40,087 nucleotides of DNA from an uncultured Clostridia bacterium (GTDB lineage: Bacteria > Bacillota > Clostridia > Christensenellales > CAG-314), in the NCBI GenBank assembly GCA_947630425.1, contig CANRHN010000012.1:1-40087 (forward strand). Reading direction: 5' to 3'. Positions 18,045 to 40,087 of the stretch are shown piece by piece. A model generated the notes under the pieces. It was not told where the DNA came from. It was given only the letters and a program-made list of their open reading frames with translations, and did not search any database. The first letter of the stretch is position 1, and the number at the start of each line of letters is the position of its first letter. The translations under genes and the position numbers were made by a program.

Positions 18045-18869
18045 CTAACCTCCCTGTACGGTAACCTTTTTACTCGCCACGCGGAACACAAGCCAACCGA
18101 CGCCCTCCAACACAACGAGCCACCCCAGCGACAACGCAAGGCTTAAAAGGGCGTTTGCCCAATCCATTTTCAACATCAATATCAGCACGGGATTTTGACT
18201 GATACCCGCAAAAGGCGAGTAATTGAGCAGCTGCTTGAACACGCCCGGAAAAAAGCTTAGCGGAATAAGCGAACCGGACAGAAAATTGACGATGACTTGC
18301 TTCATCGAGTTCATTCCCCAACCTGCCGTTGTGTAAAAGCACAGCACGCCGCAGATGTAGTCCAAGCAGTCGTACAGCATGGTAGCAAGCAGCTGTGCCG
18401 CAAAAAACAGTACCAAATGCAGCGGCACTAACCACCAAGCGGCAATGACAATATAGCCCAGCGCGGCAAAAACAATGTACAAAACGGCAAGCAGCGGCAA
18501 GCCCAACAGCACCATGTTCATGCACATCGCGCCCAAATTGGAAAAAACAAATCTCACGCGATAGCTTATCGGTTTGACAAAGGACATTGCAATTGTGCCC
18601 TTGGTGATGTCCTGCACCACGCTGTACATTGTGTTCCCCGGGAAGGACACAAAGTTGAACACGTTTATAAACGCCGCGTACACCAACATTTCCCGCAGGG
18701 TGAACCCGTTTATCACCGCCTGCTCAGAATTGGAGTAGACGCCAATCCACAAAAAGAACACGCACAAAATCTGCAATGCGCTGACAATCAGCCATCCGAA
18801 AATGTTAAAGCGATATGCGACCGTTTCCATTGCTCCCGCGCGGAAAAACGGCTTGTAACGTCTCAACAT
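18045..18869 (-). CDS. ABC-2 exporter permease, COG4587 type
   Basis: A 274-aa membrane protein with six helices, paralogous to the next gene. It has the family segments RAGAMETVAYRFNIFGWLIVSALQILCVFFLW and VVQDITKGTIAMSFVKPISYRVRFVFSNLG (the Gly-x-x-x-Lys-Pro turn). It overlaps the ATPase stop by one base and sits between the ATPase and the other permease, so translation is coupled and a heterodimeric channel is expected. The substrate is not evident from the sequence. Confidence 0.87.
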   Translation of the reverse strand: MLRRYKPFFRAGAMETVAYRFNIFGWLIVSALQILCVFFLWIGVYSNSEQAVINGFTLREMLVYAAFINVFNFVSFPGNTMYSVVQDITKGTIAMSFVKPISYRVRFVFSNLGAMCMNMVLLGLPLLAVLYIVFAALGYIVIAAWWLVPLHLVLFFAAQLLATMLYDCLDYICGVLCFYTTAGWGMNSMKQVIVNFLSGSLIPLSFFPGVFKQLLNYSPFAGISQNPVLILMLKMDWANALLSLALSLGWLVVLEGVGWLVFRVASKKVTVQGG

Positions 18870-19858
18870 CAGCCTGCCTCCTGTTCTTCGAGGATTTGTC
18901 GCACCACGTCCTCTACGGTTATCTCCGCCACCTTGAGGTCGGAGGTTTTGAGCGTGTGGAAGCAGTAGTCCACCACATGTTCCAAAGCCACCTCGTCGGC
19001 GTTGAATTTGACAAGCAGTCCGTCGCCGTCCCTTTCGTAGGTCACTTTGCCGTCAAAGGTGTTGAGCAAATCGGCGTCAAAGCTCGCTTGGGGGTTGACG
19101 GTAAGCGTGCGCAGATCGCCGAAGCGATGCTTGATGTCGGCAAGAGGACCGTCGTAAATTATGCCGCCCTTTTCTATGATTATTATGCGCGAGCATAAGT
19201 CCTCGATGTCCTGCATGTCGTGAGTTGTCAAAATCACCGTGGTGTTGTACTTGGCGTTCATCGTCTTGATGGCTTCGCGTATGTGTTGCTTTACCAACAC
19301 GTCCAAACCTATCGTCGGCTCGTCGAGAAAAAGTATTTGCGGATTGTGCAGCCACGCCGCGGCAAGGTCGGCGCGCATACGCTGTCCGAGAGAAAGCGTC
19401 CGCACCGCCTGATTGAGAAACTCCCTGATACCCAACGTCTCGCACAAAAAATCCATGCGTTCACGGTAGTCCGCGTCGTCGATACGGTAAATCTCTTTCA
19501 GCACCTTAAAGCTTTCTATCAGCGGAATATCCCACCACAGCTGCGTTTTTTGCCCAAACACGACGCCAATTTTAGACGCCACCTTTCGGCGCGCCTTGTA
19601 AGGCTCTATGCCGTCCACAAGCACCTTGCCCTCGGTGGGAGTAAGTATGCCGCACATCATTTTGATGGTTGTGGATTTGCCCGCGCCGTTGCTGCCTATG
19701 TAGCCGACGATCTCGCCGTCGCCTATTTCCGCATTGATGTGATCCACCGCCACTATCTCCTCGTACTTTGCGGAAAACAGCGTTTTGAGCATTCCGAGAA
19801 CGCCCTCCTTGCGAATGGGCTTTTTGAAAATTTTGGTGAGATTTTGCAGTTGGATCAT
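18869..19858 (-). CDS. ABC exporter ATP-binding protein, COG4586 type
   Basis: A 329-aa ATPase with the long N-terminal lead typical of COG4586 (IFKKPIRKEGVLGMLKTLFSAKYEEIVAVDHINAEI). Walker A GSNGAGKST, Q-loop VFGQKTQLWWDIPLIESFKVL, signature LSLGQRMRADLAAAWL, Walker B ILFLDEPTIGLD, and H-loop TTHDMQD are present. The LSLGQ variant and QLWWD segment are diagnostic of this subfamily. The ATG at 19858 follows GGGAGG; the track's 19936 start has no such site. Its own promoter is at 19920-19949. A second, poly-G promoter further upstream (20225-20252) also points at this gene, through the XRE gene on the opposite strand. Confidence 0.92.
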   Translation of the reverse strand: MIQLQNLTKIFKKPIRKEGVLGMLKTLFSAKYEEIVAVDHINAEIGDGEIVGYIGSNGAGKSTTIKMMCGILTPTEGKVLVDGIEPYKARRKVASKIGVVFGQKTQLWWDIPLIESFKVLKEIYRIDDADYRERMDFLCETLGIREFLNQAVRTLSLGQRMRADLAAAWLHNPQILFLDEPTIGLDVLVKQHIREAIKTMNAKYNTTVILTTHDMQDIEDLCSRIIIIEKGGIIYDGPLADIKHRFGDLRTLTVNPQASFDADLLNTFDGKVTYERDGDGLLVKFNADEVALEHVVDYCFHTLKTSDLKVAEITVEDVVRQILEEQEAG

Positions 19859-19919
19859 AAAAAACCTCCCTGTGCCGTTGCCTTGCACAAACCGCATTGT
19901 TTTAGAACATTTGTTTATA

Positions 19920-19949
19920 ATTTTACTCTTTGCCAACTGTTGCTGTCAA
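19920..19949 (-). promoter_or_regulatory. Proximal promoter of the COG4586-type exporter operon
   Basis: Minus strand TTGACA (19944-19949), 18 bp, TAAAAT (19920-19925), about 60 bp upstream of the ATPase start. Confidence 0.78.
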
Positions 19950-20015: not shown

Positions 20016-20225
20016 ATGACCATAGCACAACAGGTGGGCGAAAACCTCAGAAGCGCACGCAAGGCAAAGGGAATGACTCAACAAAAGGTTGCGGAAGCAA
20101 TGAACAAATATCAATCGGATTACAGCGACTACGAGCGCGGACTGATACAGCTTGACTACGACAAAATACTGTTTTTGTGCAATTTGTTCGACATAACCCC
20201 CAACGAATTGTTTTATATGGGCTAA
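20016..20225 (+). CDS. Small XRE-family regulator, paralogue 1
   Basis: A 69-aa single-domain Cro/CI-type HTH: VGENLRSARKAKGMTQQKVAEAMNKYQSDYSDYERGLIQLDYDKILFLCNLFDITPNELF. The ATG at 20016 follows AAGGAGAAAAAT; the track's TTG at 19998 is not used. The protein is about 70% identical by eye to the regulator at 21299, with nearly the same recognition helix (NKYQSDYSDYERG), so the two may bind similar sites. It is divergent from the ABC exporter operon and convergent with a poly-G promoter whose -10 touches its stop codon, so an antisense transcript across the gene is expected. Confidence 0.92.
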   Translation: MTIAQQVGENLRSARKAKGMTQQKVAEAMNKYQSDYSDYERGLIQLDYDKILFLCNLFDITPNELFYMG

Positions 20226-20252
20226 TTATACGCCTACCCCCCCCCCTGTCAA
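20225..20252 (-). promoter_or_regulatory. Candidate phase-variable promoter with G10 tract in the spacer
   Basis: Minus strand TTGACA (20247-20252), a 16-bp spacer made of G10 plus TAGGCG, then TATAAT (20225-20230). Both hexamers are perfect. It follows a terminator (20264-20312), so it starts a new transcript. That transcript would run antisense to the XRE gene and on into the ABC exporter operon. Changes in tract length would alter the spacer. Confidence 0.72.
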
Positions 20253-20263
20253 GTTTTTAACAC

Positions 20264-20312
20264 AAAAAAATGACTCCGAAGAGCCAAATTTTCTTGTCGC
20301 TCACATTCGGAG
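20264..20312 (-). terminator. Terminator of the DUF1292-like / membrane-protein operon
   Basis: Minus strand stem CTCCGAA / TTCGGAG with a long internal segment, followed by TCATTTTTTT. It lies 35 bases past the 20347 stop codon. Confidence 0.72.
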
Positions 20313-20346: not shown

Positions 20347-20682
20347 TTACTGTTTCAAAATACCCTTAGGCGCAAAACTGTTACGCTTGCCCGACAACAT
20401 GTCGTAGTACATATTGAACACGTTTATCGCAGTGCCTTCCTCCGCCAACTCCATCACATACTCGCCGTTGAGCTTGTACATCACAAACACCAACGCCTCG
20501 TCCGACGCTATATCGGGAATTGGGGTGACAGGGTGCAATATGCAAAAAAGTTTTTTCCCATACGGAAACACAGCCACCTGCTCGAATTCCACCTCGATAT
20601 TGTCGTTGAAGAGGGTGATATTTTCAAAATTGCGCTTGTTCAACAATTTTTTGCGCGTCTCTTTCATTTTGTTTGTTTTCAT
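20347..20682 (-). CDS. DUF1292-like small protein
   Basis: A 111-aa soluble protein. After a basic start (KTNKMKETRKKLLNKRNF) it has ENITLFNDNIEVEFEQVAVFPYGKKLFCILHPVTPIPDIASDEALVFVMYKLNGEYVMELAEEGTAINVFNMYYDMLSGK, which follows the DUF1292 pattern: a short strand with an acidic Asn/Asp turn, then 'F.vl....g.....l.p' and an acidic 'vfvm' strand. DUF1292 proteins are of unknown function, common in Firmicutes. It follows the membrane-protein gene by 8 bases, with GAGGTGAACC before the ATG, and is cotranscribed from the consensus promoter at 21220-21248. Similarity is weak and judged by eye. Confidence 0.6.
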   Translation of the reverse strand: MKTNKMKETRKKLLNKRNFENITLFNDNIEVEFEQVAVFPYGKKLFCILHPVTPIPDIASDEALVFVMYKLNGEYVMELAEEGTAINVFNMYYDMLSGKRNSFAPKGILKQ

Positions 20683-21219: not shown

Positions 21220-21248
21220 ATTATATAGGAATTTTTCCTATATGTCAA
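21220..21248 (-). promoter_or_regulatory. Perfect consensus promoter with a 9-bp palindrome in its spacer
   Basis: Minus strand TTGACA (21243-21248), 17 bp, TATAAT (21220-21225). The spacer is almost filled by ATATAGGAA-TTT-TTCCTATAT (21223-21243). A repressor bound here would block polymerase fully; the divergent XRE protein at 21299 is the obvious candidate. Confidence 0.87.
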
Positions 21249-32293: not shown

Positions 32294-32323
32294 AGTATAG
32301 CACAAGATTATATTATTTGTAAA
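32294..32323 (-). promoter_or_regulatory. Promoter of the rnf operon
   Basis: Minus strand TTTACA (32318-32323), 18 bp, TATACT (32294-32299) preceded by TGC, about 50 bp upstream of rnfC. Confidence 0.7.
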
Positions 32324-32386
32324 ATAAATAACAAAAATTTAATAAAAAAACTCTCCGCCTTGGAGAGGTTTTCACTATGCAAGAAA

Positions 32387-32412
32387 TTTCCGCGCGCGGA
32401 GACGGACGTTTC
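32387..32412 (+). repeat. Dispersed repeat GCGCGCGGAGACGGACGTTTC, copy 2
   Basis: Same core as at 22846-22869. It lies after a short hairpin CTCTCCGCCTTGGAGAG (32352-32368). It belongs to the gene-free repeat region 32330-33119. Confidence 0.65.
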
Positions 32413-32444
32413 ATCTCTATTCAACTATCGAGGGGAAGTTGCTT

Positions 32445-32600
32445 TGTGTCGAAACTCAACCACCGCTCGTCACAGCTTTCCCTCGATAGCACCAACCTCG
32501 CGCAAGTAGCAACATACTCTTACTTCGTCCCTATGTGTCGAAACTCATCCACCGCCGTTCGGCGGTCCCCCTTCTCTTGCGTCCTCAAGCGAAGGCTTTA
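32445..32600 (-). repeat. REP-like palindromic element, copy 3 (two partial units)
   Basis: GTGTCGAAACTCAACCACC (about 32447) with GATAGCACCAACCTCGC, and a second GTGTCGAAACTCATCCACC (about 32536) leading to ACCGCC-GTTC-GGCGGT (32551-32566) and CCTTCTCTTG-CGTCCT-CAAGCGAAGG (32570-32595). The small hairpin stem is one pair longer than in copy 1, and the change is compensated. The stretch from here to 32775 holds only short hairpins such as CTTCCCCACTCGTGGGGAAG. Confidence 0.72.
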
Positions 32601-32775
32601 TGTGCAGCTTTTAGCTTGCTACACACAAAATAGTAGTGCCCACTCGAAAGAGAAACCTTATATGGTTAGACGAAATGAATTTCGTCCCTATCGTCTGCTT
32701 TCGCAGACACTTCCCCACTCGTGGGGAAGCTATGCCTCTGTGACAAACTTTGTTTCAAAACAAACTGTTCTAATT

Positions 32776-33092
32776 AAAGCTCCGACCTTGTTTAACACAG
32801 GCACGAGGGTGTTCGGTGAAAAATAATCTGCAACGAACTACTACGAAGAAAAACACCCCCCCCCCAACCTTGTTCAACAAGGAGCGAGGGTGTTCGCACG
32901 CAAAACAATCCGAAATATACTACTACGAAGAAAAACGCCCAAACCTTATTCACCACAGCCGCGAGTGTGTTTCCCGAAAAATAATCTGCAACGAGCACCT
33001 TGCACAAATTTTACTTTGTTCTTCTACTAAAGGGTGCAAGGTGCGAGCGAAGCCCTTTTTTCGGGGAATATGCGAGCGGCACCGCGAAGCCC
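32776..33092 (-). repeat. Composite tandem-hairpin repeat, array 2
   Basis: Three units with the same blocks as array 1, ending in the stem GCACCTTGCAC/GTGCAAGGTGC (32995-33044). Compared with array 1, the second base pair is C-G instead of T-A: a compensatory change. The middle unit holds a C10 tract (32856-32865) where other units have C3-C5. It starts, on the minus strand, 28 bp after the 57-aa ORF stop. The relative order of tail, stem, three units and REP element matches array 1. Confidence 0.8.
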
Positions 33093-33119
33093 GTTTTGCG
33101 GCGAATACCCGATGCGACA

Positions 33120-33293
33120 TCACCAATCTTCTCTGTCCGTCAGCTTGATGTCGGTGTAAAACTCTTTGTACTTTTCCTTGAACTTTTCGCTTTCGGGACG
33201 GGTATCCTGCGCCACGGCATCGTCCAAATCCATTCCGTCGTCGTCCGCAAGCTCGCTTTGGCGCATAAGATCGTACATTGTGCTGTTTTTCAT
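33120..33293 (-). CDS. 57-aa acidic protein coupled to the antiporter (not in the ORF track)
   Basis: The ORF is below the track's size cut. It reads MKNSTMYDLMRQSELADDDG, then MDLDDAVAQDTRPESEKFKE and KYKEFYTDIKLTDREDW. It is acidic, soluble and probably helical at the end, with no family I recognise. Its ATG overlaps the antiporter stop (ATGA), so translational coupling replaces a separate ribosome binding site. The coding pattern has GC-rich third positions like its neighbours. A regulatory partner of the antiporter is possible; a fortuitous ORF is less likely given the overlap but not excluded. The composite repeat array follows at once. Confidence 0.68.
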   Translation of the reverse strand: MKNSTMYDLMRQSELADDDGMDLDDAVAQDTRPESEKFKEKYKEFYTDIKLTDREDW

Positions 33294-38209: not shown

Positions 38210-40033
38210 TTATGCAAAAGTGTTGTGATTCCAATTGTAATTCCAGTTATAATTCCAATACTCATCAACGTAAGTTTCCGTGAGATAACGAGCGTTTTGC
38301 TCGGGATCGGACAAGTCGAGCGTCTCGTCGTTCACTTCCCAATGGTCGGTTTTGTCAAAGGTGACGGAGTGCAGGTTTGCACAATCTTTGAACACTTCAC
38401 TTTCAATTTCCACGACAGAAGCGGGAATAGTTATTTGCTCTATCGCCGTGCCTTCAAAAGCGTTGATAAAAATACGTGCCAAGTTTTCCGACAGGGTTAC
38501 GTTTTTAAGATTTGTACACTCCGCAAAGGCATAACCGCCTATTCTTATGAGGGAACTCGGCATTGTTACCGACGTGATGTTTTCGTTGCCGTAAAATGCG
38601 CAGTACTCTATGTACTCCACGCCCTCGGGTACTTCTCCTTGGTCGTTGCCAAAGTAGAGGTAAGTGCCGTCCTTGTTGAGCAACTCGTTGTTGTGCGATT
38701 TGAGCGTGGTATTGCTTTCGCTTACGGTAAGTTCTTTCAAAGCGGTCAACGCGGATAGCTCGCCTTTCACGTCGATCTCCTTTTTTGTTACGCCGGCACC
38801 TAAATGCAGTTTGGCAAGGCTCTTGCAATCATTTACAATACCATCGTATAACTCGTTGTTTGGCATTTCGGGACTGCGTCCCAATTTTGTAACCGTGTCG
38901 GGAATGGTCAACTCGGTGATACCCGTGTTGCCGAATGCGCGCCGATAAATTTCCGTAAGTCCCTCGGGAAGATTTACCTTTGTGAGACCGGTTGCGTTGT
39001 AAAAAGCCTGTCTCCAAATGGTTTTGACGCTCTGCGGCAGCGTCACTTCTCCGCTGAGTTTAAGCGGAGCGTGCAGCAAAACGGACTTGTCCGCATTGTA
39101 CAAAATTCCGTTTGCGTCGGACGAATATGCTGCATTGCCCGCGGCCACTTCGTAACGAGAGAATTTGAAATCCGTGTGGTTGAATTGATTCAGAAATTCA
39201 CCAAGACCATATACATCCGGCGCATAAAACAGCTTCGCAACAGTGGACGATATGTAGATTTTTTCTATGCTTTCTTCCTCGTAGAATGGTGACTCATATT
39301 GCAGTTCATGGACCGCGACCACGCCCTCGTCAAAAACAATTTCCTCTAAAGACGGGCATTGCCAGAACATATAGTCGCTAAGCTCAACTTCTTCGCTTTT
39401 GAAGGTTACCTTTTTGAGTACGGACGACTGCTGGAAAATTTGCGGTCCGAGTTCCGTCGCGTTCGCGGGAATGACAATCTCCTCAAATCCGCTTGCGCCC
39501 AATGCCCATTTTTCTATCGTATGCAACGACTCGGGCAAAGTGAGTTCTTTCAATCCTTCCGTTCCCCAAAGTGCTTGCTGTTCCAACTTGGTTATCGTGG
39601 AGGGAAGATTGATATGTATCAATTTTTCGCAGCCTTCGTAACAAAATGCCGCTTCCCCTATAACGGTGACGTCCGCGCCCTGATAAGTGGCAGGTACGTT
39701 GGCAAATGTGGCAACGTCGGGGTTGGTGACGCCCGTCACGGCATAGGTGTTGTCCTCCAAAAGAGCAAACTCGAATTGAGCTTGCACTTCGGCATAGTCG
39801 CACACTGTACATTCGCCGTTTTCGTCCAACTTGTGAGGCGCAATGTCGGATTTTTCCGAAGTGTGTTCGCAGGTGGCGGCGTGCCAATGGTTGGTGTTGT
39901 CAAACGTCCAACCTTCCGCAAAAGTGTGCATGTGTTCAGGCGGTTCGTCGGGTTTGCAAGCGACAAGCGCAATTGCGGCAACAGCAAACACCATTGCAAA
40001 CAAAATAAGCAAAAGTTTCTTCGATTTGTTCAT
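38210..40033 (-). CDS. Surface lipoprotein with BspA-type leucine-rich repeats
   Basis: A 607-aa lipoprotein: basic start (NKSKKLLLILF), hydrophobic segment and lipobox LVAC. Residues about 34-80 hold a His/Cys-rich segment (HTFAEGWTFDNTNHWHAATCEHTSEKSD...CTVCDYAE), a type seen at the start of many gut Clostridia surface proteins. The rest is LRR_5 repeats (IGEAAFCYEGCEKLIHINLPSTITKLEQQAL and so on, at least ten). The last residues are a short repeat, NYNWNYNWNHNTFA. BspA-like proteins mediate adhesion or matrix binding; the ligand is unknown. AAAGGAGAAAAAACC precedes the ATG. Upstream is a -10 (TATACT) followed by a G12 tract at the -35 spacer position, so expression may switch. A terminator follows. 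Confidence 0.9.
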   Translation of the reverse strand: MNKSKKLLLILFAMVFAVAAIALVACKPDEPPEHMHTFAEGWTFDNTNHWHAATCEHTSEKSDIAPHKLDENGECTVCDYAEVQAQFEFALLEDNTYAVTGVTNPDVATFANVPATYQGADVTVIGEAAFCYEGCEKLIHINLPSTITKLEQQALWGTEGLKELTLPESLHTIEKWALGASGFEEIVIPANATELGPQIFQQSSVLKKVTFKSEEVELSDYMFWQCPSLEEIVFDEGVVAVHELQYESPFYEEESIEKIYISSTVAKLFYAPDVYGLGEFLNQFNHTDFKFSRYEVAAGNAAYSSDANGILYNADKSVLLHAPLKLSGEVTLPQSVKTIWRQAFYNATGLTKVNLPEGLTEIYRRAFGNTGITELTIPDTVTKLGRSPEMPNNELYDGIVNDCKSLAKLHLGAGVTKKEIDVKGELSALTALKELTVSESNTTLKSHNNELLNKDGTYLYFGNDQGEVPEGVEYIEYCAFYGNENITSVTMPSSLIRIGGYAFAECTNLKNVTLSENLARIFINAFEGTAIEQITIPASVVEIESEVFKDCANLHSVTFDKTDHWEVNDETLDLSDPEQNARYLTETYVDEYWNYNWNYNWNHNTFA

Positions 40034-40066: not shown

Positions 40067-40087
40067 AGTATATCACCCCCCCCCCCC
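40067..40087 (-). promoter_or_regulatory. Partial promoter with G12 tract, cut by the contig end
   Basis: Minus strand -10 TATACT (40067-40072) with TGA directly before it (extended -10), preceded by at least 12 G (40076-40087). The -35 lies beyond the window. With 1-3 more bases the spacer would be 16-18 bp, as in the 20225-20252 promoter. Confidence 0.6.

What the first reader, a model, noticed from the sequence alone, without database searches (positions are those of the whole stretch)
20225..20252. Consensus promoter with a G10 tract as spacer, aimed at an exporter operon and antisense to its divergent XRE regulator
TTGACA and TATAAT are both perfect and 16 bp apart, with ten of the sixteen spacer bases being G. 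Homopolymer tracts slip during replication, and spacer changes of one or two bases strongly alter sigma-A promoters; this is the known mode of porA-type switching in Neisseria. Here the -10 abuts the XRE stop codon, a terminator isolates the promoter from upstream, and the transcript would run antisense to the XRE gene and then into the COG4586-type exporter. One slip could thus lower the regulator and raise the exporter together. I know of few promoter-spacer homopolymer switches in Clostridia, where DNA inversion is more usual.
Basis: partly seen in the sequence, partly recalled or inferred. Interest (0 to 1): 0.85.

Follow-up and report, generated by a model that had tools for sequence, protein, structure and literature searches.

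The report
Slippery poly-G promoters for surface proteins
The odd promoter, with ten Gs between its two recognition boxes, is one of about a dozen in this uncultured gut bacterium (relatives have up to about 18), most of them in front of cell-surface lipoprotein genes, which suggests that these bacteria switch surface proteins on and off by letting G runs slip during DNA copying.

Summary
In detail: TTGACA-G10-TAGGCG-TATAAT, 16-bp spacer, minus strand 20225-20252. The exporter has its own near-consensus promoter downstream, conserved in three orthologous loci; the G10 promoter occurs in none of the XRE-bearing orthologues examined. If active it makes an XRE antisense RNA and perhaps reads into the exporter.

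The larger result lies outside the window. The genome holds 22 G runs of 8 or more, and 13-14 lie inside a -35/-10 spacer. The pattern occurs in 19 of 25 congeners and 70 of 248 genomes of the order, with reversed-pattern controls at zero. Outside the order it is rare (11 of 277 genomes, 1-2 each). G-run lengths are bimodal. Downstream genes are enriched for lipoproteins and secreted repeat proteins: 53 of 79 carry a signal peptide, against 65 of 344 genome-wide. Related promoters with gap-free flanks differ in tract length.

Best reading: a genome-wide set of promoters phase-variable by slippage. The mechanism resembles Neisseria porA and Mycoplasma vlp, but I found no report of it at this scale or in Clostridia. 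Slippage, transcription and switching were not measured.

The parts
20247..20252 (-). -35 hexamer TTGACA of the G10 promoter
   Evidence: sequence
20237..20246 (-). G10 tract, abutting the -35 box, inside the spacer
20225..20230 (-). -10 hexamer TATAAT, overlapping the last base of the XRE stop codon; start point inferred near 20218
20271..20286 (-). terminator-like hairpin plus T-run upstream of the promoter, ending the 20347-20682 (-) gene
20016..20225 (+). 69-aa XRE-family HTH protein (HTH_19/HTH_3), which the G10 transcript would run antisense to
   Evidence: found by DNA similarity in other genomes of the genus
18869..19858 (-). ABC exporter ATPase (ABC_tran), next sense gene downstream
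19920..19949 (-). exporter's own promoter TTGACA-N18-TAAAAT, followed by a near-palindromic AACAAATGTTC motif (about 19905-19915); conserved in orthologues L094-L096
40076..40087 (-). G12 tract at the very end of the contig, followed by TGATATACT; probable second member of the promoter class, with its -35 box beyond the contig end
   Evidence: orthologue L223 has TTGACA-AATC-G10-TATACT
38210..40033 (-). 607-aa lipoprotein with BspA-type leucine-rich repeats (LRR_5), downstream of the G12 tract

Best explanation
The 28-bp element is one member of a genome-wide class of sigma-A-type promoters whose -35/-10 spacer carries a G8-G12 run. Slipped-strand replication changes the run by one or a few bases, changing spacer length and so promoter strength, and each promoter switches independently. 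In this genus the class mainly drives large surface lipoproteins and secreted repeat proteins (BspA-type LRR, Listeria-Bacteroides repeats, Ig-like), so a clonal population would hold many surface combinations. At this locus the promoter is specific to this genome among those compared; it would make an XRE antisense RNA and may add read-through transcription to the exporter, which keeps its own promoter. Shown: anatomy, recurrence, position in the spacer, bias to surface genes, tract-length differences between related copies. Inferred: slippage within a population, effect on transcription, ON/OFF switching, and any role in controlling XRE or the exporter.
For: Own genome: 22 tracts, 13-14 in a promoter spacer. 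Genus: 19 of 25 genomes; reversed-pattern control 0 in all. Order: 70 of 248 genomes, control 0 in all, up to 18 distinct sites in one genome. Rest of class: 11 of 277 genomes, 1-2 each. G/C run lengths bimodal, A/T runs smoothly decaying. Downstream genes: 53/79 signal peptide and 37/79 lipoprotein, against 65/344 and 25/344 genome-wide (P about 1e-15), and against 10/31 and 4/31 for ordinary strong promoters (P about 0.001); Pfam LRR_5, Flg_new, Big_2, Flg_new_2. Tract differs while flanks align without gaps: L290 G12 / L295 G10 (same genome, 94% of 70 flank bases), L042 G9 / L239 G10, L057 G10 / L076 G9, L248 G8 / L250 G9; paralogous promoter units in one genome with G18/G10 and G10/G9. Spacers range from 14 to 25 bp, including lengths expected to be silent. 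The tract's place inside the spacer varies (abutting or one base from -10 in 66 of 90, elsewhere in 24), which points to spacer length rather than a fixed protein site.
Against: No reads, strains or transcripts could be examined, so length variation within one population is not shown. Tract lengths come from metagenome assemblies, where homopolymers may be off by a base. The run is strongly biased to G on the non-template strand (7 distinct C-run spacer sites against well over 100 for G), which pure spacer-length control does not predict. MutL is present across the order, so loss of mismatch repair does not explain tract instability. Some downstream genes are housekeeping-like (ribosomal protein S2, aldolase), possibly chance neighbours. 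At this locus the promoter is not conserved and the exporter has its own promoter.
Confidence: 0.74

Rival explanations
1. The G run is a fixed recognition element: a regulator or RNA polymerase feature reads G-rich non-template spacer DNA, and length does not vary functionally (a regulon, not a phasome).
For: Strong G-over-C strand bias. The commonest form is uniform, N9-G9 abutting the -10.
Against: The tract abuts -10 in most of 90 but lies elsewhere in the spacer, sometimes against -35, in 24; form and length differ between families (G9-10 here, G10-14 in G113). Lengths differ between near-identical copies. Uninterrupted runs of 9-12 are not needed for a binding site.
Confidence: 0.15
2. 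At this locus the promoter is a phase-variable control of the exporter operon, with antisense repression of XRE reinforcing it.
For: Orientation, perfect hexamers, a terminator upstream and none found between the promoter and the exporter.
Against: The exporter has a closer conserved promoter; the G10 promoter is absent from orthologous XRE loci; about 360 nt of antisense leader precede the exporter start.
Confidence: 0.3
3. The tracts are neutral or artefactual: slippage-grown runs that persist where they do no harm, or assembly or sequencing artefacts.
For: Four of 22 tracts lie within 400 bp of contig ends (0.6 expected, P = 0.0025), so they may disturb assembly.
Against: 13-14 of 22 lie between matched -35 and -10 boxes, with zero reversed-pattern controls over the genus and order samples. 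The downstream bias to surface genes is strong. The end-of-window run reads C on the + strand at the right-hand end, the opposite of dark-cycle poly-G read tails.
Confidence: 0.06

Closest known systems
Neisseria meningitidis porA / opc promoters (poly-G or poly-C in or next to the -35/-10 spacer)
   Same: A homopolymer G or C run sets -35/-10 spacing or promoter strength; the target is a surface protein (van der Ende 1995 and Sarkari 1994, cited in PMC5084427).
   Different: A few loci in a Gram-negative pathogen; here 10 or more promoters per genome in many members of a Clostridia order.
Mycoplasma hyorhinis vlp lipoprotein genes (poly-A in the promoter region of every vlp gene)
   Same: A family of surface lipoproteins, each switched on or off by indels in a homopolymer in its own promoter region (Citti and Wise 1995, described in PMC10502178).
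   Different: Poly-A and one gene family; here poly-G with perfect or near-perfect -35/-10 boxes and many unrelated surface genes scattered over the genome.
Campylobacter / Helicobacter poly-G phasomes
   Same: Tens of homopolymer tracts per small genome, many affecting surface traits (PMC6321876 and PMC2823697, abstracts; the rest from own knowledge).
   Different: There most tracts lie inside coding sequence and act by frameshift (own knowledge); here most lie in promoter spacers, with only a few intragenic ones.
Invertible promoters of Clostridioides and Bacteroides
   Same: Phase variation in gut bacteria (PMC11868660).
   Different: They need inverted repeats and a recombinase; no inverted-repeat pair brackets this promoter.

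Membership tests
porA-type promoter-spacer homopolymer phase variation | Homopolymer lies between -35 and -10 of a recognisable promoter | tested here: met
   90 unique cases
porA-type promoter-spacer homopolymer phase variation | Tract length differs between otherwise similar copies or strains | tested here: inconclusive
   met between paralogues and orthologues of the class; not testable between strains; no orthologue of this particular promoter was found
porA-type promoter-spacer homopolymer phase variation | Transcription depends on tract length | not testable with these tools
   needs reporter fusions or RNA data
SSR phasome (many independent contingency loci) | Excess of long tracts over background in the genome | tested here: met
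   bimodal G/C run lengths; 22 tracts
SSR phasome (many independent contingency loci) | Targets enriched for surface functions | tested here: met
   53/79 against 65/344 signal-peptide genes; Pfam results
SSR phasome (many independent contingency loci) | Reversible length change within a clonal population | not testable with these tools
   no reads available
Invertible promoter (invertase switch) | Promoter bracketed by inverted repeats | tested here: not met
   the only pair (19875-19886 / 20059-20070) does not bracket 20225-20252

The most novel reading that the evidence does not exclude
Several families of an order of small-genome, uncultured gut Clostridia use a promoter-spacer poly-G phasome, up to about 18 independently switching promoters per genome, as their main way to diversify surface lipoproteins. 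Promoter units are duplicated and spread among genes, the tract sits at lineage-specific positions in the spacer, and the non-template strand is almost always G.
Probability: 0.6. Interest if true: 0.85.

Novelty: new variant of a known kind. Interest (0 to 1): 0.74.

Why it matters
Slippage-driven promoter switching is known from a few loci in Neisseria, Haemophilus and mycoplasmas. Here the same anatomy recurs at 10 or more sites in single genomes and across several families of a Clostridia order, in front of surface proteins. If real, existing metagenomic reads could show surface phase variation in uncultured gut commensals with no cultivation: count G-run lengths at known promoters and link them to transcripts. 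It would also matter for strain tracking and for phage or immune interaction studies, because assemblies report only one length per tract.

Tried and rejected
Loss of mismatch repair as the cause of long tracts: MutL_C was found in 224 of 248 genomes of the order, including tract-rich ones; the window's own genome gave no hit, probably an assembly gap. Technical absence in congeners without tracts (G020, G022, G023): even G5 versions are essentially missing, so the absence looks real. C runs as an equal alternative: few and near control level. DNA inversion: no bracketing repeats. Literature: Clostridia, Firmicutes and Christensenellales combined with homopolymer phase variation gave no report of this kind; only open-access papers were searched. 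My first pattern (NNN before the run) missed the site because the run abuts the -35 box. Baseline caveat: gene starts and signal peptides were called by simple scripts, not SignalP; the promoter set comes from several congeners while the baseline comes from this genome; and paralogues are not independent.

Full report
THE OBSERVATION. The element is as described: on the minus strand TTGACA (20252-20247), G10 (20246-20237), TAGGCG, TATAAT (20230-20225), a 16-bp spacer with both boxes perfect. Three perfect TTGACA-N13..21-TATAAT promoters occur in the window; 0.02 are expected from shuffles. Upstream lies a hairpin with a T-run ending the previous gene. Downstream on the minus strand come the antisense of a 69-aa XRE-type protein (20016-20225 +), then an ABC exporter ATPase starting at 19858.

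THE LOCUS. A second strong promoter, TTGACA-N18-TAAAAT (19949-19920 minus), followed by AACAAATGTTC, lies directly before the exporter. The same arrangement (TTGACA, an A/T-rich -10, AACAAATGTTC) is present before the exporter in three orthologous loci, L094-L096, so it is the better candidate for the exporter's regular promoter, perhaps under XRE control (inference). The G10 promoter is not conserved: in the other genomes with the XRE gene that I read, similarity stops at about the XRE stop codon and no G run follows. Here, then, it is a recent or lineage-specific addition whose first product would be an XRE antisense RNA; read-through into the exporter is possible, with no terminator found in between.

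A GENOME-WIDE CLASS. The genome (1.44 Mb, 48 contigs) holds 22 distinct G/C runs of 8 or more, of lengths 8 (3), 9 (7), 10 (10), 12 (1) and 18 (1). Reading their flanks showed the same anatomy again and again: TTGACA, a few bases, the G run, TATxxT. In 434.6 kb of this genome, G/C runs fall from 248 (length 5) to 9 (6) to 0 (7) and then reappear at 8-18, while A/T runs decay smoothly. So long G runs form a separate, maintained class.

DISTRIBUTION. The pattern TTGAC-N1..15-G8-N0..9-TANNNT occurs in 19 of 25 genomes of the genus; the reversed pattern occurs in none. The C-run version is rare (7 distinct sites, 3 in the control). In the order 70 of 248 genomes match, patchily: this genus, family f32 (many genera; 25 raw matches, 18 distinct sites in G056), f15, f28, f3; the reversed control is 0 in all. 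In the rest of the class 11 of 277 sampled genomes match, with one or two each. Several congeners have no match, and three that were checked further (G020, G022, G023) lack even G5 versions.

ANATOMY. Among 90 unique promoters, nearly all from this genus, G9 (52) and G10 (28) dominate. The run abuts the -10 (within one base) in 66 and lies elsewhere in the spacer in 24, the window's being of the second kind. Spacers run from 14 to 25 bp with a mode of 18-19 (58 of 90); ordinary perfect-35 promoters of this genome have 17 in 23 of 31 (the ordinary set was searched at 16-19 only). Either most reference alleles are one or two bases too long, or G-tract DNA, which is more compact and less twisted than average B-DNA (own knowledge), makes 18 behave like 17 (inference). 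The window's 16-bp spacer would come nearer the optimum by gaining Gs, not by losing them.

TARGETS. Of 79 promoters with a callable downstream gene, 53 encode a signal peptide and 37 a lipobox, against 65 and 25 of 344 genes genome-wide (P about 3e-16 and 2e-15) and 10 and 4 of 31 genes behind ordinary strong promoters (P about 0.001 each). Domains are those of surface proteins: LRR_5 (BspA), Listeria-Bacteroides repeats, Ig-like Big_2, InlB B-repeat-like, and one collagen-like; zinc-ribbon proteins recur. In other families 11 of 19 callable genes carry a signal peptide. The window itself ends in a second case: G12 (40076-40087) before a 607-aa LRR_5 lipoprotein; its orthologue in G006 (433 identities over 611 alignment columns) has TTGACA-AATC-G10-TATACT.

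EVIDENCE FOR LENGTH CHANGE. Nine pairs of related promoters align without gaps on both sides of the run (70% or more of 70 flank bases). In five the run differs: L290 G12 / L295 G10 and L290 G12 / L280 G10 in one genome; L042 G9 / L239 G10; L057 G10 / L076 G9; L248 G8 / L250 G9. In four it is the same. Paralogous promoter units in single genomes carry G18 against G10 and G10 against G9. The G18 copy gives a 25-bp spacer, which should be silent. Four of 22 tracts lie within 400 bp of a contig end (P = 0.0025), as expected if tract heterogeneity or repetition breaks assembly. None of this replaces counting reads.

HOW IT MOST LIKELY WORKS. Slipped-strand mispairing changes the run; spacer length, and with it RNA polymerase binding, changes; each surface gene switches alone. 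The varying place of the run inside the spacer argues for length, not a fixed binding site. The strong preference for G on the non-template strand is not explained. Mismatch repair is present in the order (MutL), so high rates would come from the tracts themselves.

KNOWN RELATIVES AND NOVELTY. The mechanism is that of porA and opc in Neisseria (references in PMC5084427) and, for a set of lipoproteins, of vlp in Mycoplasma hyorhinis (PMC10502178). A 2025 review mentions Clostridioides for invertible promoters and related signalling in the passages I read (PMC11868660), and searches for homopolymer promoter switches in Firmicutes or Clostridia gave no such report. I therefore call it a new variant of a known kind: known mechanism, new scale, group and target set.

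TAXON. The nearest named records are uncultured 'Clostridiales bacterium' MAGs (HAN102-104), so I say only an uncultured Clostridia lineage; 'gut' rests on the sources named in related records.

Noticed in passing
window 40076-40087: The contig ends exactly inside a G12 (minus) tract before an LRR_5 lipoprotein gene; 4 of 22 G tracts lie within 400 bp of contig ends.
   Followed up: partly
window 32300-33290: Intergenic stretch with degenerate direct repeats about 80 bp apart and a G10 run at 32856-32865 not in a promoter spacer; similar sequence at the start of contig C36 (L058).
   Followed up: partly
L045 position 2501; L048 position 2501: Intragenic G8/G9 runs near the junction of two reading frames (a 99-aa stretch before an 841-aa frame; 29 aa before the end of an 862-aa frame), suggesting frameshift-type contingency genes as well.
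   Followed up: partly
window 19905-19949: Conserved exporter promoter followed by (G)AACAAATGTTC, a possible operator for the divergent XRE protein, shared with L094-L096.
   Followed up: partly
L095 and L096, upstream of the exporter; window 21220-21248: Tandem second XRE gene beside the first, with a TTGACATATAGGAATAATTCCTATAAAAT-like promoter whose spacer is an inverted repeat; the window has a similar promoter at 21220-21248 (minus).
   Followed up: no
genomes G020, G022, G023: Congeners with no poly-G spacer promoters at all, not even G5, so the system was lost or never gained there.
   Followed up: partly
genome G113 (family f28): Longer tracts (G10-G14) and spacers up to 23 bp; same-looking promoters with G11 (C3:295823) and G12 (C7:112874).
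   Followed up: partly
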